A stretch of DNA of 64,000 nucleotides. Origin: Fibrobacter sp. UWEL (GTDB taxonomy: Bacteria; Fibrobacterota; Fibrobacteria; Fibrobacterales; Fibrobacteraceae). Every line of letters begins with the position of its first letter. Positions within the stretch are counted from its first letter, which is position 1. The stretch spans positions 1-64,000 of the forward strand of contig NZ_FRBE01000002.1 in assembly GCF_900142535.1 (NCBI RefSeq), in the 5' to 3' direction. The position numbers were made by a program, and so were the translations under genes. The notes below the pieces were generated by a model that was not told the origin of the DNA, ran no database searches, and was given only the letters and a program-made list of their open reading frames with translations. Shown one piece after another: positions 4,313 to 25,508 of the stretch.

Positions 4313-4351
4313 GGAAACCGTATATAAAAAAACTTTTCTTCCGGGGAGCCG

Positions 4352-4555: not shown

Positions 4556-4558
4556 TGT

Positions 4559-5011
4559 ATGAACGAGCCAGTAGATATGAGACAGCTCGGCAAGCTGGGA
4601 GGCCTTGCCGCGTCCAGGAGCAAGCAGAAGGCCAAGGAGGCTCGCGACGTCGCGAGGAATGTACTTGGCACAAAGTTTACGCTGGGTGAAGGGAAGCTCA
4701 AGGAATCGCTGCGGAACATCGGAATCCAGGTTGACAAGCCGATCCAGATACGTGCAGCAATTCTTTCAGTCATGAGCGGCATGGCCCTTTCCGGAAACAT
4801 CAAGGCGGCTCGTTTTGTCTTTGACATAGCCGAGGAGACGGAAGAAACAAAGCTCACCCGCGCAAAGCGAAAAATGCTCGACAGGATGGTTGACTGTCCC
4901 GATGCGATAACGATAGACTCCAACGGGGAAATCCCCACGCCGGAGGAACTGGGAGAAATCAGAAGGCAGGCCAGGGAACTGGGCATCTACGAAAACGACT
5001 CCACAGATTGA
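4559..5011 (+). CDS. Putative terminase small subunit
   Basis: A 150-residue protein with a basic N terminus (LGGLAASRSKQKAKEAR), a central helical part (AILSVMSGMALSGNIKAARFVFDIAEE), and an acidic C terminus. I do not see a classical family signature. Position immediately before the large terminase, and the tendency of such Ala-rich helical proteins to occur there, make a small terminase subunit or packaging accessory the best guess. The first ATG after the preceding stop is used. Confidence 0.55.
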   Translation: MNEPVDMRQLGKLGGLAASRSKQKAKEARDVARNVLGTKFTLGEGKLKESLRNIGIQVDKPIQIRAAILSVMSGMALSGNIKAARFVFDIAEETEETKLTRAKRKMLDRMVDCPDAITIDSNGEIPTPEELGEIRRQARELGIYENDSTD

Positions 5012-5042
5012 AAGACTTGCAAGGAGCAATCTTCTCGCCTTC

Positions 5043-6389: not shown

Positions 6390-6404
6390 AAAGGAAATCA
6401 ACTC

Positions 6405-7643
6405 ATGGAAAAAAGCAAGATTCAGGACGGTGCCTACGGCAATTTCGTCACAGGAATGGGTCACGCCCAGATGGATAAGGGTGAAAGCACCTTCGCAAAG
6501 CCCTACGGAGGAAGCGACCTCTACGAACTGGCGAAAATGAAGGTGCAGGACGGAATTGCAGCCCGGATCGTGGAATGTGTTCCGGAAACAGCCTTCAAGC
6601 ATGACATTTCCATCATCGGAGACGAAGATGGAACAGTCCTCAAGGAATGTTTCTCCCTTGGCCTCATCGAAGCCCTGCAGGTCGCTGGCGAATATCAGCG
6701 TTTGACTGGAGGCGCAATCATCGTCACGGAATATGAGAATGACGATTTGCAGTCCCTGGCTGCACCCCCGACGTCCAGCGCCAAGGTGAGACAGTACCGC
6801 GTCTATAGCGCAGGGACAGTCGATCTTCAATCCAGCGACTTCGAGGGTGATTCCCCGAAAGTTTTCCGAGTCACCCTTCTGGACGGTGAAAGGCGCGAAA
6901 TCCACCCCCAAAGATGCACTGTCATTTATGGCAAGAAGGCCCCGGACGTCCTTCGTGGAGTCTCCCTGCGGGAACGGTTCTTCGGAACACCCGCCTTGAA
7001 GGCCAGCGAACAGAGCCTAAAGAACCTCGCCAACGTCATGGCAAGCATCGTCAATATGGCAACGGAGACAGGCGTCATGCTTTTCAGCCTGGAGAACTTC
7101 AACGAAATGCTCTCCAAGCCGGACTGCGGCATCCGCGACGCACAGGAGCTTATAAGCCTCGTCAAGCTATCCATGAGTTCGTTCCGGGGCGTTTTCAGCG
7201 GCGCAAATGACAAGTTCGAGATTTTAAGCCACAACTTCACAGGTTTGCCCGAAGTCCTGCAGAAGGCGATGAACATGGTCAGCGCGGATTCAAGAATCCC
7301 CATGAGCATCCTTTTCGGACAGAGCGCCACTGGTCTCGCCCAGACCAACGAGGGCGATACAAAGGCCTATGGCGAACTGGTGGAAAGTTGGCGATCCCGC
7401 TACATCTACCGTCCGGCAGCAAGGCTCATTTCCGAACTTGCCCACAGGAACTGCAACGCAAGCTGTAGCGAGTTCGAATGGGGACCCGTTACCGTCCTCA
7501 GCCTAAAGGAACAGCTGGAAGCAAAGAAGCTCCAGGCGGAAACCCTCAACATCTATTACCAGATGGGAGCCATAGACGCAGACAGCATCCGCGAGAGCGT
7601 CTTTCATAACGGTCACTCCTGGGAAGTAACCGTAGAGGACTAG
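6405..7643 (+). CDS. Portal protein, DUF1073-like
   Basis: The 412-residue product resembles DUF1073 phage portal proteins: an N-terminal stretch on positioning in the DNA gate, GGAIIVTEYEND near residue 105, and VSADSRIPMSILFGQSATGLAQTNEGD near residues 288-314, a hallmark of this family. It follows terL by 15 bases and precedes the minor head protein by five, the standard order of packaging genes. It would form the dodecameric ring at the capsid vertex through which DNA is loaded. Confidence 0.87.
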   Translation: MEKSKIQDGAYGNFVTGMGHAQMDKGESTFAKPYGGSDLYELAKMKVQDGIAARIVECVPETAFKHDISIIGDEDGTVLKECFSLGLIEALQVAGEYQRLTGGAIIVTEYENDDLQSLAAPPTSSAKVRQYRVYSAGTVDLQSSDFEGDSPKVFRVTLLDGERREIHPQRCTVIYGKKAPDVLRGVSLRERFFGTPALKASEQSLKNLANVMASIVNMATETGVMLFSLENFNEMLSKPDCGIRDAQELISLVKLSMSSFRGVFSGANDKFEILSHNFTGLPEVLQKAMNMVSADSRIPMSILFGQSATGLAQTNEGDTKAYGELVESWRSRYIYRPAARLISELAHRNCNASCSEFEWGPVTVLSLKEQLEAKKLQAETLNIYYQMGAIDADSIRESVFHNGHSWEVTVED

Positions 7644-7647
7644 CTGA

Positions 7648-10302
7648 ATGGCAAGCAGCTTTCTCAATTTCGTAAGGAACGTGGAACGCATCGGACAGAA
7701 GAAGCGTGGACGCAGGCCCGTCTTTAGCGCCCACCAGTTCTATCCCAGCGCCATCGAGGCGGACCTTCAAAAGGCTACCCGCGAGGAATTTGCAAGGGCG
7801 CTGGAACAGAATATCCAGCTCGCCCTCATGGGCTTCGTTGACGACCTTGACGACCTTGCGAAAGCGAAAGCTGAACTGCCCCCGGAATTTGTAAAGAAAG
7901 TGTCAAGCCTAGCCGATGCCGTCGGAGTAAAGACGGGCTGGAATTTCAGCGAATATTCAAAGATGCTTGTGGGCCAGCCCTACTTCCCCCCGGAAGCGGA
8001 AAAGTCCATCTTTGACGCATGGAAGGCAAATTTCCAGCAGCTCTGCATAAGTGCCGAAACCGACGCCAAGGCAAAGATATCCAGGCTCGCCACCGACGCG
8101 AGGATGAAGGGCTGGAGCAAATCGCAACTTGAATCTGCAATTCGCAGGGAATTGCCGATGGAGACAAAGCATCGCGCGGAGCTGATCGCCAGAACGGAAA
8201 TGGGAAAGCTCAATTCAGCAGCCAACCTTTCCACCTACAAGAAGCTGGGCATCCGCTACTATATGTGGATGACAACGCTGGACGGACGCGAGCGCGATTC
8301 CCACGCCCTCATGAACGGCTTGATCTGCAGCGTCGAAAATCCGGACGTCTATTATGAGGAAACTCCCGAAGGACTTGTGGAGCATCCAAGAACCTCGGAA
8401 ATGTACCATGGAACCCCCGGAGAGGACTTCCAATGCCGTTGCAGCATGGTCGCCTGGGAGCCGGAAATCGACGGAAAATACCAGGTCAGACAGGCGGAAC
8501 AGCCAGAGACTCCGCAGCAGGGCGCAAACGAGGCTACGAGCGCCCAGCTGGAAAAGATGGAACAGACTATCGCCCAGCAGGAAAAACAGCTGCAGGCGCT
8601 TAAAATGGAGCAGGAATCGCTGTTATCCAGGCAAAGGCTCATCCAGGCCGCAGAAAAACGCCACGAAAGGACGCCCCAGCAGATCGCGGATATCCAAAAC
8701 CGCTGGGAAGAAAGGCTCCGCAGGCGCAGAATTGCCGAAATTGCCCAGAAAAGGCATGAAAAAAGGACTATTTCACAGGAAAACGCCATCAGGAAGGAGC
8801 TGGAACGCAGAACAGCCATCCGTACAGAGGCGCACAAGCTGTTACAGGAAGCAAACGGGCTTCATGGATTGTCCGGTAAGGACGAACTGGAAAAAGCCCT
8901 GCAGAAGGGCGGCAAAAGCGCCTACAGCGAAATGGAAGCCCAGAGCGCCAAGCTGGAGGAATCCCTCAAGAAGCTCAAGGCCTGTACCTACCTTGAGGAC
9001 CCGATCCAGGTCGCCAGGGATTTCGACTATGACACAGCCATTCTAGTCAATGATTCCGTCAAGAAGAAACTCGACGGGATGCCCCGTTCCCTTTCCAGCC
9101 GAAAGCATGACCTTGAATTTGAAATCAAGTGGGTGGAGGACCATAAGAAGTATTCCAGCTGGAAGGTCGCACAGGACGCCTATAAGAAGGCGCTTCGCGA
9201 GGTGGAACAGAAAATCCTATGGGAATCCGACATTCAGCGCGTGGACGAAATCAAGGACTTTCTTGCCAAGCATCCGAAATCCGGAATCATCAAGAAGCTG
9301 GCGGAGGATATGGACGCCGCGATTGCAAAGGGTGACGCCGCAGCAAGAACGGAATTTCAACAGCTATTGAAGAAGGCCGAAACAAGAAAGGCCGAAATCG
9401 AAGCCAAGGAACTTCGCGAACGCTTGAAGAAGATCAAGAGCGGAACAGCTGGTGGAATCCCCTTCGGAACACTCACTCTCCCGGAACTCAAGGCCACCAT
9501 GGGTTCAAAATTACCCAAGACCCTTGAGCATCTGGATGACGCCATCGCCAAGTACGAAAAATCCAGAAAGTACGGTTCGGACACAAAGAAGTACGCCAAG
9601 GAAATTGAAGCCAACATGAAGATGCTTTTCCAGCAGCATGACCTGGGAATGCACATTGACGACGATATTCTCGAAAAGGTTTTCACCAGCCATTTCAAGA
9701 ACACTTTCGAAACAGGAAGCTCCGGCGGTTATTGTGGCCCAAGCCTAAACGCAGATGGTTCAATCAAACAGTCTCACGCACGTTTGGGTGCCGCCCATAA
9801 TCTTTTCGGCCTTGGTTCCACCGACAGGGCAAATCAGCTCAAGATCGGCCAGTACGAAAAATACGGAAACCTGCTGGACCACGACAAACTTCGCGAGTTC
9901 AAGTCCCACAATCCGGCCACGCAGTACGGAAATGTCACAGTTCGTTTCAAGAAGGATAAGGTCGTCTGCACCTGGACTGCTGGCGACAGCCTCGGCGAAA
10001 CTTACCAGCCCAGCCTCGTCACCGATCCCAAGGCTGTGTCCTACGACGATATGAGCGAAAGAAAATTGCCGAAACTTGGAACGGACACTTCCAACATGGC
10101 AAACTTCCGAGACAACAATATCCGAAGCTACTTGGAACTACAGTTCCATGGCGACGTCACAATCGATTGCGTGGAATCACTTACCTATCCCTATGACTTG
10201 ATGGATAAAAGTAAAGCCACCCATTTACAGGTGGCTAAAAAATGGCAGAGCATCGGAGCAGAGGTTTATTACATCAAGAACGGAAAGCTGGAGAAGTTGT
10301 AG
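7648..10302 (+). CDS. Minor head protein (Mu gpF/SPP1 gp7-like) with long coiled coil and C-terminal effector-like domain
   Basis: This 884-residue protein is much longer than ordinary minor head proteins. Residues about 170-265 hold the phage head morphogenesis domain: RAELIARTEMGK, TTLDGRERDSHALMNG, and GEDFQCRCS. Residues about 290-600 are rich in Glu, Lys, Gln and Ala and predict a long coiled coil. Residues about 690-884 form a separate globular part with QYEKYGNL, TWTAGDSLGE and YLELQFHGDV. These three blocks recall DUF3626-type proteins with an ADP-ribosyltransferase-like pattern. If so, this could be an effector packaged in the virion and injected with DNA; that is inference. Confidence 0.85.
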   Translation: MASSFLNFVRNVERIGQKKRGRRPVFSAHQFYPSAIEADLQKATREEFARALEQNIQLALMGFVDDLDDLAKAKAELPPEFVKKVSSLADAVGVKTGWNFSEYSKMLVGQPYFPPEAEKSIFDAWKANFQQLCISAETDAKAKISRLATDARMKGWSKSQLESAIRRELPMETKHRAELIARTEMGKLNSAANLSTYKKLGIRYYMWMTTLDGRERDSHALMNGLICSVENPDVYYEETPEGLVEHPRTSEMYHGTPGEDFQCRCSMVAWEPEIDGKYQVRQAEQPETPQQGANEATSAQLEKMEQTIAQQEKQLQALKMEQESLLSRQRLIQAAEKRHERTPQQIADIQNRWEERLRRRRIAEIAQKRHEKRTISQENAIRKELERRTAIRTEAHKLLQEANGLHGLSGKDELEKALQKGGKSAYSEMEAQSAKLEESLKKLKACTYLEDPIQVARDFDYDTAILVNDSVKKKLDGMPRSLSSRKHDLEFEIKWVEDHKKYSSWKVAQDAYKKALREVEQKILWESDIQRVDEIKDFLAKHPKSGIIKKLAEDMDAAIAKGDAAARTEFQQLLKKAETRKAEIEAKELRERLKKIKSGTAGGIPFGTLTLPELKATMGSKLPKTLEHLDDAIAKYEKSRKYGSDTKKYAKEIEANMKMLFQQHDLGMHIDDDILEKVFTSHFKNTFETGSSGGYCGPSLNADGSIKQSHARLGAAHNLFGLGSTDRANQLKIGQYEKYGNLLDHDKLREFKSHNPATQYGNVTVRFKKDKVVCTWTAGDSLGETYQPSLVTDPKAVSYDDMSERKLPKLGTDTSNMANFRDNNIRSYLELQFHGDVTIDCVESLTYPYDLMDKSKATHLQVAKKWQSIGAEVYYIKNGKLEKL

Positions 10303-10316
10303 GATAAACCAAAGAC

Positions 10317-10703
10317 TCAAGAAGCCGTTTGACTACCCTTACCCAATTTTTTCAACCTAAAGAATTCCTCGCGTTTAGCAACGAATTCCACTATCAGCTG
10401 TTTTAATTCGACTGTACTGACAGTTTCCTCGTTGATTATACCCTCAGCCTCATCATCTTCATCTGGATAAAGATATTCTACTCTTGAACAATCTTTATGA
10501 ATCTCGACAAAGCAAATATTTCCACTCACCTCAGCTCTTTCAAATTTATCTGAAAGGACTAGATCAATGTGTTCCAGAAAAGTCCCCAACAAATCACATT
10601 CACTGGAAAGGAATACACTTATCAAGGAATGTTCCTTACCAAAATCGAAAATGATATCCGTCTTTTCTCCGTCATGGACAATGTGTTCAATAGTGTACTT
10701 CAT
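10317..10703 (-). CDS. Putative immunity protein for the EndoU toxin
   Basis: A 128-residue soluble acidic protein starting MKYTIEHIVHDGEKTDI. It lies three bases downstream of the EndoU-domain gene in the same operon, exactly where immunity proteins of polymorphic or contact-dependent toxins sit. I recognise no conserved motif. Size, acidity and the many Asp/Glu in its second half fit an inhibitor of a basic RNase. The ATG at 10703 gives a normal start; base composition is more AT-rich than the packaging genes. Confidence 0.55.
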   Translation of the reverse strand: MKYTIEHIVHDGEKTDIIFDFGKEHSLISVFLSSECDLLGTFLEHIDLVLSDKFERAEVSGNICFVEIHKDCSRVEYLYPDEDDEAEGIINEETVSTVELKQLIVEFVAKREEFFRLKKLGKGSQTAS

Positions 10704-10706
10704 AAT

Positions 10707-11294
10707 TTATTTCCCCCTAATCGGAAAAGCCGTCCTTATTTTACCTGTGTTTTTATGAACGATAATTCGTATCGTTATTCCCGATAAAGACACTCCTTCA
10801 AGAATGGTTGGTCTATGTGGATTGACTGGGGTTGCGTTTGAATAAGAGTGATTGATTTCGTTCACCACCTGTTGTGGAGACCAATTTCGAGGAAAGAAGG
10901 AGGATTCTTGAGCTTTAACCAGAATTTTCCCGTGATATTCCTTCATTACTTTGCCATAGTAAACTCCATTTTTATCAGGAGCTGTTTTGGAACCGGGAAT
11001 TATCCTCGCCGTATTTCCACGAACACCTTCATGATGGTATCCTTTTAATTCTCCTTTTTCGTTCACCTCTCCCCTAAATATATGATTTAAGGCTTCTTTT
11101 GTAAACGACTGGGTATTTTCCAGTTGGTTCAAAATTGCAGCAGGTTCCCTCGGCTCTTCGGAATTGAGCTGCCGAAACAGCTGTTCGATTTCATTTTCGA
11201 TTTCTTCTACATGCTTTTTGTTTTCAAGTTGTTCAAGACTAAGGTAAACACTCTCCCTAGTGCCACTGGCAAGATTAGTACAGCTTACGCGCAT
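10707..11294 (-). CDS. EndoU-family nuclease toxin
   Basis: The 195-residue protein carries a bacterial EndoU domain from about residue 66 to the end. Visible hallmarks are NHIFRGE (His71), GYHHE (His87/His88), VYYGKV, SSFFPRNWS (131-139) and the C-terminal IRTAFP. Bacterial EndoU domains cleave RNA and occur as C-terminal toxins of CdiA and related systems. Here the domain is free-standing with a short coiled N terminus. It lies between a DUF4417 gene (10-bp overlap) and a probable immunity gene. It may act as a phage-borne toxin for competition, superinfection exclusion or addiction. Confidence 0.8.
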   Translation of the reverse strand: MRVSCTNLASGTRESVYLSLEQLENKKHVEEIENEIEQLFRQLNSEEPREPAAILNQLENTQSFTKEALNHIFRGEVNEKGELKGYHHEGVRGNTARIIPGSKTAPDKNGVYYGKVMKEYHGKILVKAQESSFFPRNWSPQQVVNEINHSYSNATPVNPHRPTILEGVSLSGITIRIIVHKNTGKIRTAFPIRGK

Positions 11295-12034
11295 TTCTTC
11301 CCCCTTCTTTCCTTTGCAAGAACAATATTCCTTTCCTTCAGCATATTGGGTGGAGCCTTAACGTCGATTCCTTTCTGGCGTGCGTAAGCGAAAATTTCAT
11401 CAACAGCATGGTTATCCTTGCACACATCATAAACAAGAATTGACTTTAGCTTCAGTGTATCTACGGTTACCCTTACAGCCTCCATCAGAACACTCTTTTC
11501 GTAGGGATCGTCAACACAACCTTTGGTACTAAACGCAACTACGCTACAATCCTGCAGGCCCTCAAGCACCCAAGCAAGATGTTTCAAGTTCGGAAAAGTA
11601 ATCAGCGGAATCACAGATATCCCCATTTCCTGGTTTAACCATAAGGAAATAATTCGAGATCGCTTCAACCTATACAAGTTTTCAATGTGGTCAACATCAC
11701 CGCACTGCGAACAATCTGGAGCGATGGCAAATCGAACGCCCTTGAACCGTTTCCTAAATTTTTCCAGGTCTCGTTTATTGTCATAGTAGATAGCATTGTA
11801 AAGTCCCCGCTGCCCATCAAACGTATCATCATAACTGAAAAATGAAACAGCTGTAAAAGGAGTGCGATGATAATCACCAGGCTGCTGATATACGGCGATG
11901 TAATCTGGCAGCACCTTCGTATGACAATGCATTTCCGGGAGATCAAACTCCCCGCGCATAGTCGTCTTGAGTAAGTATTTTAGGTAGTGGAGTAGTAGCC
12001 GCTTCACCAGAAGTAGCGGATTTTTCTTTTGCAT
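11285..12034 (-). CDS. DUF4417-like protein
   Basis: A 249-residue protein resembling DUF4417 of phages and mobile elements. It has FAIAPDCSQCGD near residue 101, then YRLKRSRIISLWLNQEMGISVIPLITF and a CSVVAFSTKGCVDD segment. Its biochemical role is not known. The start ATG 12034 is preceded by AAGGAA at a workable distance. It overlaps the toxin gene by 10 bases and begins the toxin-immunity operon. The sequence upstream holds the structured element at 12101-12236. Basic residues dominate its first 25 positions, so a shorter start is possible. Confidence 0.65.
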   Translation of the reverse strand: MQKKNPLLLVKRLLLHYLKYLLKTTMRGEFDLPEMHCHTKVLPDYIAVYQQPGDYHRTPFTAVSFFSYDDTFDGQRGLYNAIYYDNKRDLEKFRKRFKGVRFAIAPDCSQCGDVDHIENLYRLKRSRIISLWLNQEMGISVIPLITFPNLKHLAWVLEGLQDCSVVAFSTKGCVDDPYEKSVLMEAVRVTVDTLKLKSILVYDVCKDNHAVDEIFAYARQKGIDVKAPPNMLKERNIVLAKERRGKKCA

Positions 12035-12100
12035 AAGAAATTTCCTTAAAAGAAAAAATGTTGAATTTTACCAAATTTCGGCATTTACCGAACATGGCGA

Positions 12101-12236
12101 GAATCGACCCGTCTAAAACCAATTTAGACGGGGTGGTCAAAACGCCCATTTATTTCTATTTTAAGGAAACCGTAGCTTCTACAGAAATGTTGAGGCGAAG
12201 TCCTGGATCGCGCCAACGATTCCAGGGCTTTTTTTG
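12101..12236 (+). ncRNA. Structured RNA-like element with intrinsic terminator (copy A)
   Basis: On the plus strand this intergenic stretch folds into a series of stems. CCCGTCTAAA (12108-12117) pairs with TTTAGACGGG (12123-12132). ATTTCT (12152-12157) pairs with AGAAAT (12183-12188). The terminator hairpin has arms 12199-12209 and 12218-12229, followed by TTTTTTT. A related architecture occurs at 13629-13778. The terminator orientation argues for a plus-strand transcript opposite the flanking minus-strand genes. I match it to no named RNA class. Confidence 0.45.
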
Positions 12237-12306
12237 ATGACCGAAAATATTGATTACAGACTTTCGATCTTTACATGGAATCAGCCCTCCATCTTGAAAT
12301 TCCTGG

Positions 12307-12927
12307 TTATAGCGATCCAATCGTGGTATCTATATGCCCTCTAGGATACCCCGTTTTCTCAAACCTGTACGGAAATGTCACCACAGTTTTGCCATTGGAT
12401 TTGGGGAATTTTACAGCATCAACCAAATCTTTAACTTCTTGGTCAAACTTCGGCATATTCGTGCTCGATGAAAGGATTTCACTTCTTTCAACAGAACCCT
12501 TTTCATTGATTACCTGCTTGAAAACGATTTCGCCAGTAAAATACACGGAATCACCTCCAACAGCTTGCATTTCCTCTAACGTTTTTCGGTACAGGCCTCT
12601 TATCAATCCCCCTCGTTCACCTTCGGCTTGTACTATTTGGCTTCTTCTAAGTGAAGAACCCGAATCAACTTCAACAAGTTTGCCATAAGGCACGCGAGAA
12701 TTGAATGGACCTCGGTGAACGATAATACCTGCTGGGTGCTCACACTGAGGACAGGCTTCTATTTTATTACCAACCAACGGCGGTATACCATCCCAATTAA
12801 AAAATAACGTTTCTTGATTTTCACGTTTAACGCCATCTTTGTGCTGCGCAGAATCAGCGTTGGAATCACCACATGAACAATAGAGGATTGACAATCCTGC
12901 AAGAAGAAGGTTCACGACTTTATTCAT
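12307..12927 (-). CDS. Lipoprotein with TonB/AgmX-like C-terminal domain
   Basis: The ATG at 12927 gives a clean type II signal peptide (NLLLAGLSILYCSC, lipobox Cys about residue 17). A disordered linker follows. The C-terminal half, GEIVFKQVINEKGSVERSEI...FDQEVKDLVDAVKFP, looks like the AgmX/TonB C-terminal fold with its beta-hairpin plus helix. It is 206 residues long. A longer ORF start at 12969 would destroy the signal peptide. It lies five bases from the HExxH gene, so both belong to one unit. A surface-exclusion (lipoprotein conversion) role is possible but not shown. Confidence 0.55.
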   Translation of the reverse strand: MNKVVNLLLAGLSILYCSCGDSNADSAQHKDGVKRENQETLFFNWDGIPPLVGNKIEACPQCEHPAGIIVHRGPFNSRVPYGKLVEVDSGSSLRRSQIVQAEGERGGLIRGLYRKTLEEMQAVGGDSVYFTGEIVFKQVINEKGSVERSEILSSSTNMPKFDQEVKDLVDAVKFPKSNGKTVVTFPYRFEKTGYPRGHIDTTIGSL

Positions 12928-12931
12928 ATTT

Positions 12932-13621
12932 CTAATACCCGATTTGAATAAATTCTCCATAAACATCAACCAAGGCCTTCAACATTGGCCAGACATCGGA
13001 TTTTTTGTCTATGACAATTTTTCCGATCCTGTTGTCAAATTTGGCGACATCCATAGAATCCAGTTCTTTGTCCATTTTAGCAAATCTTTCCATAAGGCAT
13101 CTGTAGGCAACGTCGCTCAATGAACGGTAACCATTATTACGTCGGTTCATATGATCCTTATGAATCATTTGACGTACAGAAATGATGGCTTGATGGGAAA
13201 TTTCATGATGAGCAGCATTGGATATATAGTCTGCAGCCCATTCCTGTGCAAGATAGGTTGTTGAACGAGGCTTTACGTAATTTCCGCCATAATTTCCATG
13301 CCAATCTTCCTGGGTTGTACATCCGTACAATTTGCGTGGAGATAAGGTTTCCAGAACGCCATGGCAAACCTCATCTACTTCATCTTTGGGCCAAACAGCC
13401 AGTTCATCATTTTGAGGTGCAAATGTGACACCTTTCTGCCCCAGTCGTTCCGCAATCGGTTGCATCATGGCTGTCGCCTGTGCCAAGGCCCATTCCCAGT
13501 GACGATTGTAAAAACCTTTTGTATCCAGGTTGGAATCCAAAAGTTCTTCTGTGGATTCATCTTCAAAGTCTATATCGCCGACTTTAGGGGCGCTGTTAAG
13601 AAATGCAGTCATTGCATTCAC
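12932..13621 (-). CDS. Unknown protein with HExxH motif
   Basis: A 229-residue protein without a recognised family. Near residue 138 it contains NAAHHEISHQAI, which includes HEISH, the HExxH pattern of zinc metalloproteases, flanked by small residues as in a true helix. An upstream region rich in Trp, Gln and Ala and a C-terminal acidic part have no visible motif. There is no signal peptide, so it acts in the cytoplasm if at all. It is the first gene of a two-gene cassette with a lipoprotein, between two RNA-like elements. Confidence 0.5.
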   Translation of the reverse strand: MNAMTAFLNSAPKVGDIDFEDESTEELLDSNLDTKGFYNRHWEWALAQATAMMQPIAERLGQKGVTFAPQNDELAVWPKDEVDEVCHGVLETLSPRKLYGCTTQEDWHGNYGGNYVKPRSTTYLAQEWAADYISNAAHHEISHQAIISVRQMIHKDHMNRRNNGYRSLSDVAYRCLMERFAKMDKELDSMDVAKFDNRIGKIVIDKKSDVWPMLKALVDVYGEFIQIGY

Positions 13622-13628
13622 CTTTCGA

Positions 13629-13778
13629 GTAGCGATTTCCGCCTTTCGGCAGAAATCTAGGTTTGACTAAACCCACCTATATTGCTACTTTAAAGGTTCC
13701 TTACGTCTTATCTGGTAGCAATACCTGGTGAGCATTGTGCCGGAAGGCTGCACATGCGGCTTTCCGGCATTTTTTTTA
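13629..13778 (+). ncRNA. Structured RNA-like element with intrinsic terminator (copy B)
   Basis: Stems visible on the plus strand: GATTTC/GAAATC with an inner GCC/GGC (about 13634-13657); TATTGCTAC (13680-13688) with GTAGCAATA (13715-13723), nine perfect pairs; and a long terminator hairpin with arms 13739-13751 and 13756-13768 followed by eight T residues. The middle stem encloses TTTAAAGG, close to TTTTAAGG enclosed by the matching stem of copy A, while the paired bases differ in a compensatory way. No known RNA family is recognised. Confidence 0.45.
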
Positions 13779-13801
13779 AAGGATTTATCCTTCTCAAAAA
13801 A

Positions 13802-14323
13802 TTACATAGCAGAGTTTCTCCATTTGATAATTCTACTTTCGCATTCTTCTTTCGGGAGCCTAACGTTCTTCTTCATCAAGGCCTCCAGCTTTTCAGCAGC
13901 AATTCCAGGTAAAAGAACGCTTTTCTCGACCAACCTGTCAAATATATAGAGGATGCCGGAGACTCGCACAGAGTCCTGTTCCGCGACCGACCGCAGCTTC
14001 CTGTCCCCGGTCAGTAAACGCCCATTCACTTTCTTCGCATAATACCAGACGGAACAGTCCGGCATGGAGGCGTTATTCACGCAAGACCTTTGCATTGCGG
14101 AAATTTCAAACATTTCCTGCAACTCGAATACAGCCACTTTCAGTTTTCCTTCCTTCTGGAATCCTTCAATTCTCGTCAGCTGTTCTGGCTTTGTGATTTC
14201 ACCAATCACCAAGTCCGTGGTATGCACTTCCCAAGGCAAGTCGAAGAACAGCGTCAGTAGGTCCACCGACAGCAGATCGAACAAAATGTTCGCATCACTT
14301 ATGACAATTCGTTCATCCATCAT
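13802..14323 (-). CDS. PIN-domain toxin-like protein
   Basis: The 173-residue protein begins MMDERIVISDANILFDLL, the first acidic site of a PIN nuclease (Asp10). It later has MPDCSVWYYAKKVNGRLLTGDRKLR, which holds the conserved downstream Asp residues. PIN toxins cleave RNA and are usually neutralised by a partner DNA-binding antitoxin. The start codon overlaps the stop of the XRE-ImmA gene by an ATGA, so both are co-translated. This matches a known arrangement of HTH/COG2856 proteins with PIN partners. Confidence 0.8.
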   Translation of the reverse strand: MMDERIVISDANILFDLLSVDLLTLFFDLPWEVHTTDLVIGEITKPEQLTRIEGFQKEGKLKVAVFELQEMFEISAMQRSCVNNASMPDCSVWYYAKKVNGRLLTGDRKLRSVAEQDSVRVSGILYIFDRLVEKSVLLPGIAAEKLEALMKKNVRLPKEECESRIIKWRNSAM

Positions 14324-15375
14324 GCGAGAGCGTAATCCTCTCTTACATCTTCAATGTTGATGCGCAACAGATTTGCCGCCTTGGAAATAGTAATCAATTC
14401 GCTATAGAGCGCCTTATAGACCAGGCTGGTAAAGCGGTTTGATTCTTCCTTGCGACAAATGGACTGTTCTACAAAACGTTTGTAGCTTGGGTCCTGGCTT
14501 TTGTGGATATTGTACCACTTATAGCATTGAGACGTAATCACACCACATTCACAGGCTTTGTACATCAGGGCATCATAGGAAATTCCGAAACGGGTTTGCA
14601 ACGGAGCCACTTCCTTATAGGAAATGCTCTTTCGCGCAACACCGAGAAAGCGCTTCATTTCGGATTCCGGAATCAGCATTTCGTTTGCAAAAAGATTGCA
14701 AAGAGCTTCTTCTTCCTTCGTTTCGATTCCATCCTTAAAGCGCATGATCAAATGGCCAAGTTCATGCAAGGCGGTAAAACGCTTTCTTTCCGCATTTTCA
14801 GAACGCCTTAGGACAATTACCGGATGCTTAACATCGTCAGCGCTACTCAACCCGTCAAAGATATCTGGAGCATCAACTTCAACGACCTTGTAGCCATGTT
14901 CTTCAAGCAAGTCAATAACATTCGGGATTCCATCGATACCCAGATTCCATTTCCGTCTAAGTTCCTGGGCAGTTTTCTTTACATCATCCTTTGTTTCGAC
15001 CGGATATTTCTTTACTTCCGCAGAAACGGAAACCTCGTTGCAGATTTCCTCGACATTGATGTAACGTTCAACTTTATCAATAATGGTTTCTTCAATGGAC
15101 TTTATTTCTTTCTGAGTTACGGAAGCCTTTTTTCTGAACTTGACAGCACCCATTTTGAAGGTGATTGGACGAAAGAAATAATCAATAGGCTGTTCCAGCG
15201 CCTTCGCGATGGAAAGAAGCGTAGTGCTGTTGGGCTGCATAGCGCCACTTTCATACTTAGAGATCGTCATTTTTGACACTTTGGGGGTCATTTTTTCACA
15301 AAGTTCTTCCATAGAATACCCCTTCATAAGTCGGGCACTCTTTAACCTCGTCATAAAAATTTCCATATCAGTCAT
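14320..15375 (-). CDS. XRE-type HTH regulator with ImmA/IrrE peptidase domain
   Basis: This 351-residue protein has an N-terminal XRE HTH (residues about 8-68, with KMTISKYESGAMQPNSTTL as recognition helix region) and a C-terminal COG2856/ImmA metallopeptidase domain with HELGHLIMRF near residue 204. Family members either degrade phage repressors or act as the antitoxin part of a pair. The ATGA overlap with the PIN gene supports the second role. An upstream GGAG seven bases from ATG 15375 fits this start. The 223-bp AT-rich upstream region probably holds its autoregulated promoter. Confidence 0.85.
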   Translation of the reverse strand: MTDMEIFMTRLKSARLMKGYSMEELCEKMTPKVSKMTISKYESGAMQPNSTTLLSIAKALEQPIDYFFRPITFKMGAVKFRKKASVTQKEIKSIEETIIDKVERYINVEEICNEVSVSAEVKKYPVETKDDVKKTAQELRRKWNLGIDGIPNVIDLLEEHGYKVVEVDAPDIFDGLSSADDVKHPVIVLRRSENAERKRFTALHELGHLIMRFKDGIETKEEEALCNLFANEMLIPESEMKRFLGVARKSISYKEVAPLQTRFGISYDALMYKACECGVITSQCYKWYNIHKSQDPSYKRFVEQSICRKEESNRFTSLVYKALYSELITISKAANLLRINIEDVREDYALA

Positions 15376-15598
15376 AATGTGTCTCCGTTTTCTATTTTAC
15401 AAATCTAATAAATTTTTATTCAAATGTAAACACCAAAAATAAACATTTTCCATCAATACAACCAGAAAACGACCAAATTCGTAAATATATTTAGTCTTTT
15501 TTGCAAAAAAAAACGTTCTTTTCATTCTTATTTACGGAATAACATCCAAAAACGTAGGCTTTAGTTTCAAAGACACCATCAAGGGAATAATCGAAAAA
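15376..15598. other. AT-rich regulatory gap upstream of XRE-ImmA
   Basis: No gene is seen here. The stretch is strongly AT-rich and contains TTCGTAAATATATTTAGTC (15477-15495) and ATTTACGGAAT (15530-15540). These share the TTTACG/CGTAAA half-site in opposite orientation and could be operators for the XRE protein. It may carry the promoter of the gene at 15375; that assignment is inference. Confidence 0.3.
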
Positions 15599-15931
15599 TC
15601 ACCCACGAACATTCTTATCCACAGTTTCCTTGCACTGTTTCAGCATTGCTTCCGCAGCCTTGTGGGCATCACCATGTATCTTTTCCAGGAAGGCTTTAGT
15701 CTTACTACGAAAGTTATCATTGAACTCACCCTGCAAGACATTAGGCCATTTCCCAATTTTCAAATCTTTGACAAAGGTGTTTGCCAAAACACGAATTTCA
15801 CTTTTTCCAGGATATTTCTTTTCCCGGTAATAGTCGCGCGTCAAGTTCGAAAGGCGCGCCATCGCTGTTTCCAAATCAATGTCGGCGCCCGTTTTGACAA
15901 AGATTTTTAGGGAATTTTCAAGGCATTGCAT
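15599..15931 (-). CDS. Hypothetical phage protein (110 aa)
   Basis: A basic helical protein of 110 residues with no recognised family. A repeat of Lys, Arg, Asn and Ala and the predicted helices TAMARLSNLTRDYYREKKY and HKAAEAMLKQCKETV suggest a small all-alpha cytoplasmic protein. It lies at the distal end of the minus-strand early gene run, after the terminator at 16243-16275. Its own gene is AT-rich like its neighbours. Coding status rests on the open frame and on its gene-like spacing to the next gene (17 bases). Confidence 0.5.
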   Translation of the reverse strand: MQCLENSLKIFVKTGADIDLETAMARLSNLTRDYYREKKYPGKSEIRVLANTFVKDLKIGKWPNVLQGEFNDNFRSKTKAFLEKIHGDAHKAAEAMLKQCKETVDKNVRG

Positions 15932-15948
15932 AAAAAGTCCAACAGCTT

Positions 15949-16209
15949 CTAAAGAATAATATCCAGCGAAGCGGGTTTCACTGGTTCCAGGAAGCCAATC
16001 AAAGGATCGAGAGAACTGTTTCCCCTAGCTTCCTGAATAACCTTGAAAATCTTTGCTGCGGTGGCGCCTGCCTTGGGCGTAAACTCCGATCCATCGGAAT
16101 ACCTGGTAAAGATGATGTTATCCAACCAGCGACACCATGTAATCGAATAATCATGGATCATGCAGTATTCCGTCAATTCAACAGATGCAGCAAGGTCTTT
16201 GTAATTCAT
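15949..16209 (-). CDS. Hypothetical phage protein (86 aa)
   Basis: The ATG at 16209 is preceded by AAAGGGAAG, a good ribosome binding site; an upstream in-frame ATG at 16239 overlaps the terminator side and is less likely. The 86 residues (MNYKDLAASVELTEYC...) show no known domain. Trp and Cys near residues 25-28 and an Ala-rich helix KAGATAAKIFKVIQEA are the main visible features. No signal peptide is present. The function is unknown; it lies just after a minus-strand terminator, so it probably has its own promoter. Confidence 0.5.
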   Translation of the reverse strand: MNYKDLAASVELTEYCMIHDYSITWCRWLDNIIFTRYSDGSEFTPKAGATAAKIFKVIQEARGNSSLDPLIGFLEPVKPASLDIIL

Positions 16210-16242
16210 GGTCAGCTTCCCTTTAGGATTCAATTTCAAGAT

Positions 16243-16275
16243 AACAAAAACTCCAAGATTTGTGCAATCTTGGAG
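16243..16275 (-). terminator. Intrinsic terminator of the early small-gene operon
   Basis: The arms CTCCAAGATT (16251-16260) and AATCTTGGAG (16266-16275) are perfect inverse complements around a five-base loop. On the minus strand the stem is followed by TTTTTG. It closes the operon that runs from about 18866 down to the 51-residue gene at 16306. Confidence 0.75.
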
Positions 16276-16305
16276 CCTTGATGAACAGTTTATGGATTTA
16301 AATCT

Positions 16306-16461
16306 CTATTCCCTGTCGCCAGCGACAATCAGCAGATCGTCATAATTGTCGTCCTTTTCCAGTTTTTCGACCTGGCGATAATCGCCATTTCCATTCTGAG
16401 AAAGAACAACCCAGTCCGAGGGGAACTTCTGCAGTTCCTTGATAAGTTCTCCAGCTGTCAT
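16306..16461 (-). CDS. Small phage protein (51 aa)
   Basis: A 51-codon gene from ATG 16461 to TAG 16306. The protein starts MTAGELIKELQKFPSDWVVL, a pattern common in small phage and plasmid proteins where a GELI-helix is followed by an LPxDxxV strand; the function of such proteins is unknown. It ends just before the terminator at 16275 and follows the gene at 16475 by 13 bases, so it is the last gene of the operon. Confidence 0.6.
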   Translation of the reverse strand: MTAGELIKELQKFPSDWVVLSQNGNGDYRQVEKLEKDDNYDDLLIVAGDRE

Positions 16462-16474
16462 TTAGGCCTCACCG

Positions 16475-16753
16475 TTAGAAATAGAGCTTGCTGACGTTCA
16501 TGCGAATTTCTTCGCTTGCCTTGGAGTTCTTGAGGTACTCCCGAATCAGTTCTACAAACTGATAGGGCGCCCACTTTGCGATATAGGCGCAGACCATCCT
16601 AAAGAAGTCCAGCTCAGTCTGTTTTTCAACAGTCCGCGCATACTCCTTGCAGACGAAATTTTCAGCCACCCAGAACTTGCCTGCATGACCCTTCCCCGCC
16701 TCGAAAGGACAGTTTTCCTCGCCCTTGTAATAGGTACAGAAATCTTCAAACAT
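16475..16753 (-). CDS. Hypothetical phage protein (92 aa)
   Basis: Ninety-two residues beginning MFEDFCTYYKGEENCPFE. Several Cys residues and a Trp-rich helix (VCAYIAKWAPYQFVELIREYL) are visible. The CxxYYxGExxCPF arrangement recalls small Cys-containing phage proteins, but I cannot name a family. It sits in a chain of minus-strand early genes with short gaps and is likely co-transcribed with them. Confidence 0.5.
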   Translation of the reverse strand: MFEDFCTYYKGEENCPFEAGKGHAGKFWVAENFVCKEYARTVEKQTELDFFRMVCAYIAKWAPYQFVELIREYLKNSKASEEIRMNVSKLYF

Positions 16754-16783
16754 TGATTTTTCCTCTTGTGATAAGATAGCATT

Positions 16784-17197
16784 TTAAGACTGTTGCTGAA
16801 TGTCCTTCAACATATCGGCAACCACAGACTTTATCCAGCCAGGTTTCAGCTCATACCCGGAGGAACATTTCTCCAGATAGTCCGTCACCTTGGCCTCAAT
16901 CTGATCCAGATTGTCGAATACTGTAAAGCAGCATTCCGGGTCCTGGGTCAATGGCGAGCCACGCCCAGCCATGCGGTTCTGCAAGCTGCAGGCGTAATAG
17001 ACATAAGGATAGAGAAGCGCGCATTTAAGCTCCAAATAGGCCATGTAGCCCTCGCCCTTCGTATAGGTGTGAACATTCGTCACATAGACGCCCACATCGT
17101 TCGTAAGGGCGCAAAGCCACGATTTACACCATGGCTTTGCACTGTTGGGGATTTCTACGCGGTCAAGTATCGAAAAGAAATCCAGCTGGTCTGTCAT
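16784..17197 (-). CDS. Hypothetical phage protein (137 aa)
   Basis: A 137-residue protein with no assigned family. It has several Cys and aromatic residues (KPWCKSWLCALTNDVG, then YVYYACSLQNRMAGRGSP). The start ATG 17197 overlaps the stop of the DUF4314-like gene by an ATGA, which is strong evidence that the frame is real and translationally coupled. No signal peptide or membrane segment is seen. It is part of the early gene chain, where small replication, takeover or anti-defence proteins usually reside. Confidence 0.6.
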   Translation of the reverse strand: MTDQLDFFSILDRVEIPNSAKPWCKSWLCALTNDVGVYVTNVHTYTKGEGYMAYLELKCALLYPYVYYACSLQNRMAGRGSPLTQDPECCFTVFDNLDQIEAKVTDYLEKCSSGYELKPGWIKSVVADMLKDIQQQS

Positions 17198-17367
17198 TTG
17201 TGGCCTATAACCTCGAAGCGATCGTTCTCGGGCTGAACAGCCAGCCCACCCCAGCTTCCATGCAACTGGCCCAGGCTGTCGATGTGTTCCACGACGCCAG
17301 TCTTTCCCGTATAACGCGGTTCACCAAGCATTTCAATAATCTTGATAATGTCTCCAACTTTTACCAT
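17194..17367 (-). CDS. DUF4314-like small protein (57 aa)
   Basis: The 57 residues start MVKVGDIIKIIEMLGEP and continue with TGKTGVVEHIDSLGQLHGSW and a final NDRFEVIG. This order resembles the DUF4314 domain, an SH3-like barrel with G-T-x-G-x-V-x-x-x-D-x-x-G-x-I-H-x-x-W. A perfect AGGAGG sits five bases before ATG 17367. The stop TGA shares the ATGA overlap with the next gene. DUF4314 proteins are common in phages and conjugative elements; their role is unknown. Confidence 0.7.
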   Translation of the reverse strand: MVKVGDIIKIIEMLGEPRYTGKTGVVEHIDSLGQLHGSWGGLAVQPENDRFEVIGHK

Positions 17368-17376
17368 GGTCGCCTC

Positions 17377-17754
17377 CTAGCAGTATTCCACCTGGGTGAG
17401 CATTTCATAGCCTTCCGGAAAGTTACGGGTACAGAGCTTCTGGACTCGCTCGCGAACGTATTCGATTTCATCATCCTCAAGTCCGGTTTCTACGCCATCC
17501 TTGCAGTTCACCACAAGAAGGTTGCCAACAAACATAGGCGCGCCCAGGTTGTCGATGGCGCTGATCTTGTTATCTTCCTTCATCAGCCCCTCATCATCAC
17601 AGATAATGTCGAATACCTTCTTGCCGACCTTGCGCGACTGGATGTCAATCAGTTCACAGTGAAGCTCGCGATAATAGTCCTCCAGCTTGTTTTCGATTTC
17701 AACGACGCGGCTGTTTCCGCCAATCACGTCAATAAGAAATGCCTTGATTTTCAT
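17377..17754 (-). CDS. DUF3846-like protein (125 aa)
   Basis: A 125-residue protein with the DUF3846 pattern: an N-terminal strand MKIKAFLIDV, a helix with VVEIENKLEDYYRELH, then FDIICDDEGLMKEDNKISAID, and a glycine turn NLGAPMFVGNLLVV. DUF3846 proteins are small accessory proteins of phages and integrative elements without known function. The stop codon overlaps the Shine-Dalgarno of the next gene, so the two are closely coupled. Confidence 0.7.
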   Translation of the reverse strand: MKIKAFLIDVIGGNSRVVEIENKLEDYYRELHCELIDIQSRKVGKKVFDIICDDEGLMKEDNKISAIDNLGAPMFVGNLLVVNCKDGVETGLEDDEIEYVRERVQKLCTRNFPEGYEMLTQVEYC

Positions 17755-17784
17755 AATTCGGTGTCCCTTAAATTTTGGTGGTGA

Positions 17785-18018
17785 TTATTTGATGGTCCAG
17801 CAGGATTCTCGCGCCTGCCATTCAGCCTTGAGTCCAAATGCGGCCGCGATCTCGATTACAGTCTGTTTCTGGACCGCTACGGCACTCAAAAGCTCACGCT
17901 GGTACTTGCGATACTCCGCGCTGGAGCTGTTTTCGGCGGTCTTGCGAAGTTCCACCGATTTTTGCTCATAACCCCAGAGCGCCTTGAGCAGCACCTTCTT
18001 GACTTCTTCAATTTCCAT
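17785..18018 (-). CDS. Small helical phage protein (77 aa)
   Basis: From ATG 18018 the 77 residues begin MEIEEVKKVLLKALWGYEQK. The codon at 18018 is favoured because AGGGA lies six bases before it, whereas the ATG at 18024 directly abuts that sequence. An upstream extension in the same frame to 18138 reads through a terminator-like hairpin and is rejected. Helical, charged, no known domain. It ends at 17785, 30 bases before the DUF3846-like gene. Confidence 0.5.
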   Translation of the reverse strand: MEIEEVKKVLLKALWGYEQKSVELRKTAENSSSAEYRKYQRELLSAVAVQKQTVIEIAAAFGLKAEWQARESCWTIK

Positions 18019-18033
18019 TTTCATTCCCTGTTC

Positions 18034-18056
18034 AAAAATACCTAACTTAATTAGGT
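18034..18056 (-). terminator. Weak terminator/attenuator hairpin
   Basis: ACCTAA (18040-18045) and TTAGGT (18051-18056) pair around a five-base loop; TATTTTT follows on the minus strand. Lying between the genes at 18098 and 18018, it may reduce read-through from the SpoVG end of the operon. It shares CCTAAC..TTAGG sequence with the terminator at 360-391. Confidence 0.4.
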
Positions 18057-18097
18057 TTTTCAAGTAATAAAAAAGGAGGAATCTGAACAGCCTTAAA

Positions 18098-18511
18098 CTA
18101 GGCCTCCGATTCCTCCGGTTCTTCTTCGGATTCCTCAATCGCGCTGTCGATCAATTCCTCCAGTTCCTCCATGGCCTTTTCAATTCCCTCGTCCAGCAAA
18201 TAGCAACGGATCGTCACGTCAGCCCATTCGGCGCCCTTCGCGATGGCGTCACACTCGCAACAGAACTCGCTCATGGCTTCGCCAAGCAGGTCCCAGTTAC
18301 CAGCAAGATTCTGTTCCGCTTCATAGGAGGAAAAGGTATAGGAACCGGAAGCATTGCCTGTGACGGAATCGTCAATCCAGAACGCGTCATGGAACTTTTC
18401 AGTCAGCGTTTCCTTCGACATTCCCTTCACTTCATCCTTATGGTAATCCAGATATTCCTTGATGGCGGTTTCACAATCTTCTTTGATGGCGTCGTGGTAA
18501 TTGTAGCTCAT
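18098..18511 (-). CDS. Acidic phage protein of unknown function (137 aa)
   Basis: A 137-residue protein with a very acidic C-terminal tail (ELEELIDSAIEESEEEPEESEA) and two adjacent Cys residues (SEFCCECDAIAKG). Overall strong negative charge is compatible with a DNA-mimic or anti-restriction role, but no specific family is recognised. It lies between spoVG and the small-helical gene in the early region, where phage anti-defence genes tend to cluster. The ATG at 18511 follows the preceding gene by 31 bases. Confidence 0.55.
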   Translation of the reverse strand: MSYNYHDAIKEDCETAIKEYLDYHKDEVKGMSKETLTEKFHDAFWIDDSVTGNASGSYTFSSYEAEQNLAGNWDLLGEAMSEFCCECDAIAKGAEWADVTIRCYLLDEGIEKAMEELEELIDSAIEESEEEPEESEA

Positions 18512-18542
18512 GGTTTGGAATCCTTATTTTCAATGGTGATTT

Positions 18543-18866
18543 TTAAGCGATTGCGGCCTGGTATTTTTCCAGGATGCAATTTTCGATGTGTTCACGAAGC
18601 TGGCGGGTAATGGGCTGGGCGATACAGCGGAAATCCTCGCCCTTGTAGAACGGATCGTTCGGATAGCCAACAAAAAGACCGTTTTCACCGTCCATAATGC
18701 GCAAGCCGCGAAGCATGAGCTGGTCATTGAAAACAACAGTTGCAAGGCCCTTCATGTGGCCCATGCTGGGGCCTTCCTTGAAGGGGAAAACCTGCACGTT
18801 CGTGATTGCCAAACAGTCAAAGACGTTTGCGATCTGGGTTTCGGTGTTTTTGGTTTCGTTATTCAT
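18543..18866 (-). CDS. spoVG: SpoVG family protein
   Basis: The 107-residue protein matches SpoVG: after about 22 variable residues come ITNVQVFPF, a beta-hairpin LATVVFNDQLMLRGLRIMDGENGLFVGYP, and the DFRCIAQPITRQLREHIENCILEKY helix. SpoVG binds nucleic acids and regulates gene expression in Firmicutes and spirochaetes. It is rarely mentioned in Fibrobacterota. In a phage early region it probably acts as a regulator of host or phage transcripts. It heads the minus-strand chain down to 16306. Confidence 0.85.
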   Translation of the reverse strand: MNNETKNTETQIANVFDCLAITNVQVFPFKEGPSMGHMKGLATVVFNDQLMLRGLRIMDGENGLFVGYPNDPFYKGEDFRCIAQPITRQLREHIENCILEKYQAAIA

Positions 18867-18923
18867 GATTTTTTCCTTTTTTAGGGTTTGTGGTTAAAAG
18901 AAAGGCCTGCCGATCAGCAGGTC

Positions 18924-19109
18924 CTAAATGATGTAGGCCGGGTGAGCCTTGTGGTCGGTTCCGCCAAGGTAGCGTTTGACCCATTCAATAGCAGCCTTCT
19001 TGCTGCTGGCTACGTCAACAGTCACGCTCCAGGTTCTGGGTTCCCCGTTAAACTTGTAGGCGACGTTGTAGTACCTAAACTCGCCCTTATTTGTCTTTCT
19101 TGTATTCAT
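18924..19109 (-). CDS. Small hypothetical protein (61 aa)
   Basis: Sixty-one residues, MNTRKTNKGEFRYYNVAYK..., with beta-rich start and a helix SSKKAAIEWVKRYLGG. No family recognised. The basic, compact make-up resembles small DNA- or RNA-binding phage proteins. It is the gene closest to the integrase terminator in the early block and probably has its own AT-rich promoter at 19110-19230. Confidence 0.45.
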   Translation of the reverse strand: MNTRKTNKGEFRYYNVAYKFNGEPRTWSVTVDVASSKKAAIEWVKRYLGGTDHKAHPAYII

Positions 19110-19233
19110 TTGAACCAGCCTTGTTTGCTCATTTGTACACTACAAATCTACATAACCGCACAGCTATGTCAAGACGTAAATCAAGAAAAATTCAAATATT
19201 TTTCATTTTCTTTCAATTTTCATTGTTCAATAG

Positions 19234-19269
19234 ACAAAAAAAGAGCCATAGACGGATAGTCTATAGCCC
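19234..19269 (-). terminator. Intrinsic terminator downstream of the integrase
   Basis: AGCCATAGAC (19244-19253) pairs with GTCTATAGCC (19259-19268). On the minus strand the stem is followed by a run of seven T, so it ends the integrase transcript before the small early genes. Confidence 0.8.
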
Positions 19270-19290
19270 TTTCACGATTTCCGCAAGGTT

Positions 19291-20379: not shown

Positions 20380-20412
20380 AGACCTCCCCGGCGATCCTCG
20401 GGTGCCAGTCAA

Positions 20413-25485: not shown

Positions 25486-25508
25486 CGCAAGAGCGTTGAT
25501 AGCGATTT

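What the first reader, a model, noticed from the sequence alone, without database searches (positions are those of the whole stretch)
12101..13778. Two related structured RNA-like elements with compensatory changes
Seen: 12101-12236 and 13629-13778 share a stem of the form ATTNCT...AGNAAT (ATTTCT/AGAAAT vs ATTGCT/AGCAAT) enclosing (T)TTTAA(A)GG, a preceding hairpin and a terminal hairpin with a T run on the plus strand. Base changes that keep pairing suggest a conserved RNA. Both flank cargo cassettes. No known RNA family comes to mind.
Basis: partly seen in the sequence, partly recalled or inferred. Interest (0 to 1): 0.65.

Follow-up and report, generated by a model that had tools for sequence, protein, structure and literature searches.

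The report
Antisense RNAs guarding phage toxin genes
Two short stretches in a Fibrobacter prophage each encode a small RNA that runs backwards through the start of a toxin-like gene cluster, and the same arrangement recurs in about twenty related genomic places, suggesting a new family of antisense RNA switches that keep such genes quiet until needed.

Summary
In detail: both elements share the stem ATTnCT...AGnAAT, a preceding hairpin and a plus-strand terminator. A covariance model finds 21 distinct loci, almost all in Fibrobacteraceae, with strong covariation (0/500 shuffles).

The 5' arm of the named stem is the -10 box (TTGCTATnTT) of the element's own promoter. The plus-strand product is therefore most likely a ~70-85 nt sRNA: a short 5' single strand, a hairpin usually capped by GNRA, and a terminator.

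Every scored copy lies antisense to, and just upstream of, a minus-strand cargo operon: DUF4417 plus EndoU, Ntox50 or other toxin-like genes, or an HExxH protein. Where no co-directional gene precedes the operon, a minus-strand promoter usually sits just past the sRNA terminator, so the cargo mRNA leader should read through the sRNA gene.

Best explanation: a cis-antisense RNA silencing toxin-like operons, resembling hok/sok, SymE/SymR or CopA/CopT, probably by refolding the leader so that an anti-Shine-Dalgarno segment covers the ribosome site. The antisense geometry is well supported; the refolding step is inferred; expression and function are untested. No Rfam family matches. I call it a new variant of a known kind.

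The parts
12134..12162 (+). e1 sRNA promoter: -35 region TGGTCA (12134-12139), 17 nt, -10 TATTTT (12157-12162)
   Evidence: Sequence; conserved in the A-type members; the -10 matches the organism's TTGCTATnTT promoter type seen before tRNA-Glu. The -35 is weak.
12168..12235 (+). e1 small RNA, start estimated about 7 nt after the -10: 5' single strand, hairpin 12175-12196 (GAAA loop 12184-12187), terminator about 12198-12229 plus T run
   Evidence: Folds; R2 hit 12130-12238, 73.4 bits, E 7.6e-15; start not measured.
12143..12197 (-). e1 long-range stem S2 (outer CGCC 12143-12146 / GGCG 12194-12197, inner ATTTCT 12152-12157 / AGAAAT 12183-12188), most likely a hairpin of the minus-strand mRNA leader
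   Evidence: Covariation; minus-strand fold; wobble bias not plus.
12042..12052 (-). e1 cargo Shine-Dalgarno region TTTTAAGGAAA, complementary over 11 nt to the anti-SD stretch TTTCCTTAAAA (plus coordinates 12159-12169)
   Evidence: Inverted repeat I2; S3 analysis.
12107..12131 (.). e1 preceding hairpin CCCGTCTAAA...TTTAGACGGG, between S2 and the ribosome site on the mRNA strand
   Evidence: Sequence and fold.
13663..13691 (+). e2 sRNA promoter: TTGACT (13663-13668), 17 nt, extended -10 TGC-TACTTT (13686-13691)
   Evidence: Sequence.
13698..13778 (+). e2 small RNA, start estimated: hairpin 13707-13732 with GCAA loop 13718-13721, terminator 13737-13770, T run
   Evidence: R2 hit 13659-13778, 105.2 bits, E 3.2e-22; start not measured.
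13674..13730 (-). e2 long-range stem S2 (CACC 13674-13677 / GGTG 13727-13730; ATTGCTAC 13681-13688 / GTAGCAAT 13715-13722)
13620..13632 (-). e2 ribosome-site region CTACTCGAAAGGT, partner of the anti-SD stretch ACCTTTAAAGTAG (plus coordinates 13685-13697)
11285..12034 (-). DUF4417 protein (PF14386), first gene of the e1-controlled cargo operon
   Evidence: Pfam E 1.1e-18.
10707..11294 (-). EndoU ribonuclease toxin-like gene (PF14436), overlaps DUF4417 by 10 nt
   Evidence: Pfam E 1.8e-23.
10317..10703 (-). Putative immunity protein after EndoU; homologues follow EndoU in G018 and G061
   Evidence: Synteny and phmmer matches.
12932..13621 (-). HExxH (HEISH) protein, first gene of the e2-controlled cassette
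   Evidence: Motif in sequence; homologue next to another copy in G117b, E 4e-71; no Pfam match.
12307..12969 (-). Lipoprotein-like partner with a TonB/AgmX-like C-terminus
   Evidence: NCBIfam NF033768 E 1.1e-8, below its cut-off.
13802..14323 (-). 173-aa PIN-like gene, usual neighbour on the other flank
   Evidence: PADLOC PDC-S70 E 3.7e-6; homologues in G117a, G136, G096; PIN assignment is by eye.
14320..15375 (-). HTH + M78 (ImmA/IrrE-type) regulator, RmrA-like
   Evidence: Pfam E 2.7e-15; PADLOC RmrA E 9.8e-47.

Best explanation
Each element is the gene of a ~70-85 nt cis-antisense RNA lying in the 5' leader (or the intercistronic gap) of a minus-strand operon that encodes toxin-like proteins, candidate immunity proteins and usually DUF4417. 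A plus-strand housekeeping promoter makes the sRNA, which folds into a capped hairpin and ends at an intrinsic terminator. The cargo mRNA is transcribed through the same DNA in the other direction, either from a promoter just past the sRNA terminator or from the upstream HTH-M78 genes. In the free mRNA the leader forms the long stem S2. The sRNA pairs with the S2 loop and 5' arm; this frees the 3' arm, which contains an anti-Shine-Dalgarno stretch, to pair with the cargo ribosome site (S3) and block translation. When the regulator switches the operon on or the sRNA runs out, the cargo is made. Shown by sequence: element family, promoter and terminator signals, antisense geometry, covariation of S2, locus-specific complementarity of S3. 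Inferred: that both RNAs are made, that they pair, that pairing represses, and that the cargo is toxic.
For: Family and covariation. Cargo: DUF4417 in the same divergent operon at 17 of 21 loci, with EndoU, Ntox50 (E 7.1e-20) or other small toxin-like genes; the other 4 have HExxH proteins. Antisense transcription: TTGACA-17-TATATT/TATTAT/TAGTTT promoters on the minus strand within ~80 nt of the sRNA terminator at 5 of 8 loci lacking a co-directional upstream gene (0-3 of 500 shuffles reach them); weaker ones elsewhere. The sRNA hairpin S1 folds on the plus strand: 27 G-U vs 7 A-C in the 12-column core, p 0.0008; S2 shows 8 vs 12, Fisher 0.007. Ribosome-site complementarity S3: own 18.4 vs swapped 15.6, 0/20000 permutations; mRNA-strand wobbles 24 vs 11. 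Blocking the sRNA-covered part raises predicted S3 from 0.39 to 0.74 (p 0.0001). G001 and G032b have a short leader ORF ending inside the toxin start, as in mok-hok (read by eye).
Against: No transcript data exist here. The predicted overall accessibility of the ribosome site does not change on blocking (0.42 to 0.40, p 0.7), and blocking a competitor raises S3 almost by construction. S2's wobble count alone does not reach significance for the minus strand, and the S1-S2 contrast depends on the core length chosen (not significant at 10 columns). S3 is weak in G140, G144b, G010 and G038. G032c and G001 lack a good minus-strand -35. Start codons and S1/S2 anchors were set by hand, and the permutation tests do not model phylogeny.
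Confidence: 0.62

Rival explanations
1. A free-standing plus-strand regulatory RNA that acts in trans on other messages; its place beside cargo genes is hitch-hiking on the cassette.
For: Own promoter and terminator, plus-strand wobble bias of the hairpin, conserved 5' single strand such as GGTTCCT.
Against: Does not explain the locus-specific complementarity to the neighbouring ribosome site, the covariation with its own promoter arm or the minus-strand promoters aimed through it.
Confidence: 0.12
2. The inverted repeat S2 is a pair of DNA operator half-sites for the HTH-M78 (CapH/CapP- or ImmR-like) regulator: one site covers the sRNA -10 box and the other lies downstream.
For: HTH and/or M78 homologues flank 14 of 21 loci; S2 pairs are mostly Watson-Crick with no clear strand bias; in G117a both arms are the same palindromic sequence.
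Against: The spacing between arms varies by several bases (20-27), G144b and G032c show no such regulator nearby, and the repeat stays similar next to very different HTH proteins. It does not predict S3 or the wobble bias of S1.
Confidence: 0.15
3. The RNA is a stable partner or guide bound by DUF4417, forming a ribonucleoprotein.
For: DUF4417 at 17 of 21 loci; the predicted fold is weakly TIM-barrel-like, with queuine tRNA-ribosyltransferases among marginal matches.
Against: Four copies have no DUF4417 in their cargo operon, and many DUF4417 genes show no recognisable element. Structure matches are weak (TM about 0.4).
Confidence: 0.07
4. Only a promoter-terminator insulator between cassettes, with no specific RNA function.
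For: Terminators and promoters are the most constant features.
Against: The covariation inside the transcript and with the ribosome site would be unnecessary.
Confidence: 0.04

Closest known systems
Type I toxin-antitoxin SymE/SymR (E. coli)
   Same: An antisense RNA encoded opposite the 5' end of a non-hydrophobic, nuclease-type toxin gene, blocking its translation; induced by DNA damage (PMC4147584).
   Different: SymR overlaps the ribosome site and start codon. Here the RNA ends upstream and would act by refolding. Cargo is polycistronic with candidate immunity proteins and DUF4417. No sequence relation was looked for or is claimed.
hok/Sok with the mok leader ORF (plasmid R1)
   Same: Antisense RNA aimed at a leader, and at two loci a short leader ORF that overlaps the toxin start (PMC4147584).
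   Different: Hok is a small membrane peptide; no leader ORF in most members here; no evidence for 3' processing.
aapA/IsoA of Helicobacter pylori
   Same: Cis antisense RNA plus anti-Shine-Dalgarno structures that sequester the toxin ribosome site (PMC6733600).
   Different: Small toxin peptides; the long-distance interaction is 5'-3' and relieved by 3' cleavage.
CopA/CopT of plasmid R1 (from general knowledge)
   Same: Antisense RNA to a leader stem-loop controls translation of a downstream gene.
   Different: Controls replication initiation, not toxin-like cargo; CopA carries the whole stem-loop, whereas here the sRNA carries only one arm.
MuF polymorphic toxins of temperate phages (PMC5576092)
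   Same: Same toxin repertoire (EndoU, Ntox50, metallopeptidases) and a MuF gene directly beside this locus.
   Different: Those toxins are fused to MuF; here they are separate genes on the opposite strand with an antisense RNA.

Membership tests
Type I toxin-antitoxin system | Antitoxin is an RNA with antisense complementarity to the toxin mRNA | tested here: inconclusive
   Antisense geometry and minus-strand promoters found; neither transcript has been measured.
Type I toxin-antitoxin system | Toxin is typically a small hydrophobic peptide | tested here: not met
   First cargo genes are roughly 120-320 aa soluble-type proteins: DUF4417, EndoU, HExxH. SymE and RalR are accepted exceptions.
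Type I toxin-antitoxin system | Toxicity without the RNA and rescue by it | not testable with these tools
   Needs expression experiments.
Type III toxin-antitoxin system (ToxIN-like) | RNA antitoxin encoded just upstream of and in the same direction as the toxin, as tandem repeats | tested here: not met
   RNA is on the opposite strand with its own promoter and has no tandem repeats.
Any Rfam 15 family | Score at or above the family's gathering threshold | tested here: not met
   Only tRNA-Glu matches in the window; best weak match MicX 22.2 bits against 75.
RosmerTA defence system | RmrA (HTH-M78) paired with an RmrT toxin | tested here: inconclusive
   RmrA matches strongly (E 9.8e-47) but no RmrT match; the neighbour matches PDC-S70 instead.
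Polymorphic toxin cassettes | Exchangeable toxin domains each followed by a cognate immunity gene | tested here: inconclusive
   EndoU, Ntox50, HExxH and unknown small proteins exchange beside the same RNA; immunity genes are inferred from position.

The most novel reading that the evidence does not exclude
A new family of cis-antisense RNAs in Fibrobacteraceae prophages and islands controls whole polymorphic-toxin operons through a three-way leader switch (stem S2, sRNA, anti-SD S3), under an HTH-M78 regulator. DUF4417 is a constant, uncharacterised component of these toxin cassettes.
Probability: 0.4. Interest if true: 0.76.

Novelty: new variant of a known kind. Interest (0 to 1): 0.63.

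Why it matters
Antisense control of toxins is known mainly for small membrane peptides in a few phyla. Here one RNA architecture guards many unrelated, swappable toxin-like enzymes in a rumen phylum with little RNA biology described in what I found. It would explain how phages carry dangerous cargo silently, and it ties the unknown protein DUF4417 to toxin cassettes, giving a testable handle on its function. The three mutually exclusive pairings are defined base by base and can be tested with reporter mutants.

Tried and rejected
Rfam search at gathering and relaxed thresholds: no family. BLAST with single copies: only fragments, though these gave the first two homologues. DUF4417 relatives in IMG/VR by peptide pattern: only the window's own contig. 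Integron attC-like or retron-like readings were dropped once promoter, terminator and antisense cargo were clear. A sRNA-DUF4417 two-gene system was demoted because four copies lack DUF4417 in their operon. A DUF4417 structure search gave only weak TIM-barrel-like matches.

Full report
What is there. The window is the first 64 kb of contig C2 of a 3.5 Mb genome in the genus Fibrobacter or very near it (a pattern scan reaches a Fibrobacter succinogenes MAG contig that fits one of the same-genus genomes). Window 494-20412 looks like a prophage: ParB-like, TGT-like and QueE-like genes, terminase, portal, MuF and an integrase, and IMG/VR holds the same DNA as a viral contig. The elements lie in a train of minus-strand cargo genes between MuF (ends 10302) and the integrase (19291-20412): HTH-M78, PIN-like, [e2], HExxH protein, lipoprotein-like, [e1], DUF4417, EndoU, putative immunity.

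Anatomy. Each element has a sigma-70-like promoter (e2: TTGACT, 17 nt, TGC-TACTTT), a short 5' single strand, a hairpin with a lower and an upper stem capped by a GNRA loop, and an intrinsic terminator, all on the plus strand. TTGCTATnTT is the organism's ordinary extended -10 box: it also stands before the window's tRNA-Glu gene and before another gene.

Family. A model from four copies found ten clear members in 61 genomes of the genus. A second model from eleven copies, searched in 168 genomes of the phylum, gave 21 distinct loci after near-duplicates are set aside and one order-level relative (G038, weak at E 0.012) is included. More diverged copies can be seen by eye upstream of other DUF4417 genes (L081, L082, L084; contig C21 of the own genome). 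Nothing was found outside Fibrobacterota, with the limits stated.

Neighbourhood. All 21 loci have a cargo operon on the opposite strand starting next to the element. DUF4417 belongs to it in 17; the other four have an HExxH protein, with a lipoprotein and sometimes a Fic protein. Toxin-like domains exchange: EndoU, Ntox50, a nuclease-like protein, and unknown 120-aa proteins. HTH and/or M78 homologues flank 14 of 21 by sequence search; the window's copy matches RmrA and more weakly CapP.

Which RNA folds. Over the 21 sequences the named stem plus terminator shows 91.6% paired cells and 73 two-sided changes, with no shuffle in 500 reaching either; slid controls collapse. The named helix extends outward into the promoter spacer (for example AATGCTCAC/GTGAGCATT in G079, CCGAAT/ATTCGG in G002, CGCT/AGCG in G061), and arms of one locus fit each other better than arms of other loci, 0/20000 permutations. 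Wobble pairs tell the strands apart: the hairpin inside the sRNA has 27 G-U against 7 A-C in its 12-column core (p 0.0008), while the named stem has 8 against 12 (Fisher 0.007). The contrast holds for core lengths of 12 to 20 columns but not for 10. The hairpin thus folds in the plus-strand sRNA; the named stem shows no such bias and fits the opposite strand, or DNA, better.

The opposite strand. Of eight loci with no co-directional gene upstream, five have a TTGACA-17-(TATATT, TATTAT or TAGTTT) promoter on the minus strand just past the sRNA terminator, pointing at the cargo; shuffles reach these scores in 0-0.6%. The other three are weaker. Elsewhere the upstream HTH-M78 or PIN gene ends close to the element with no minus-strand terminator seen, so a shared transcript is likely. 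The cargo mRNA leader should therefore run through the sRNA gene.

Mechanism. The leader stretch just beyond the sRNA-covered part is complementary to the cargo's own ribosome site or start codon: 11 nt in e1 (already listed as inverted repeat I2), AACCTTTAAGAT/ATCTTAGAGGTT in G136, TCTTCATAA/TTATGAAGA over the AUG in G018. Own pairs beat swapped pairs (18.4 vs 15.6; 0/20000), and wobbles favour the mRNA strand, 24 to 11. Blocking the sRNA-covered bases raises the predicted probability of this pairing from 0.39 to 0.74. The predicted overall openness of the ribosome site did not change, so the refolding step stays an inference. In G001 and G032b a short leader ORF ends inside the toxin start, like mok in hok/Sok (sequences; comparison).

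Comparison. It works like a type I antitoxin or a plasmid copy-control antisense RNA, with SymE/SymR the nearest in logic. I do not file it as a type I system: the cargo is not a small hydrophobic peptide, immunity proteins seem to be present, and no toxicity has been shown. It is not type III (wrong strand, no repeats) and not in Rfam.

Limits. No expression data. Anchors and start codons were set by hand. Genomes are mostly drafts and unnamed. Related sequences make permutation results approximate.

Noticed in passing
L072, L078, L094, L095, L096, L097, roughly 100-300 nt upstream of DUF4417-like genes: A different, highly structured ~200-nt conserved element (AATAAAAAAGGCGTGG...CACCACAACCC...AATAAGCACAAACGACCCACGCCC) recurs upstream of other DUF4417-like genes in Fibrobacter; terminator-like end on the other strand; a possible fragment near G010. 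Could be another RNA family or a dispersed repeat.
   Followed up: no
window 494-2915: Prophage genes resembling ParB-like, queuine tRNA-ribosyltransferase (phrog_887, E 1.5e-39) and QueE radical SAM proteins: a likely 7-deazaguanine DNA modification set.
   Followed up: no
window 11285-12034 and homologues: DUF4417 recurs in operons with toxin-like and candidate immunity genes; predicted fold weakly TIM-barrel-like (pLDDT 86). Its role is unknown; a 2025 paper reports phage ParB-DUF4417 fusions.
   Followed up: partly
G000 contig C21, about 150-300 nt upstream of the DUF4417 gene at 1057-1551 (L209): A further diverged copy of the antisense element (TATGCTATATT...CTATAGCGAAA, terminator GCGCCTCGG...GGGGCGC) with a perfect TTGACA-17-TATATT promoter facing back through it.
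   Followed up: partly
window 25492-25590: A weak R2 match (18.6 bits, E 0.04) on the plus strand; not examined.
   Followed up: no
L201 and L204 (G144b, G032c): HExxH proteins followed by a small secreted-looking protein and a Fic protein (PF02661 E 9.2e-20 in G144b) beside the antisense element, without DUF4417.
   Followed up: partly
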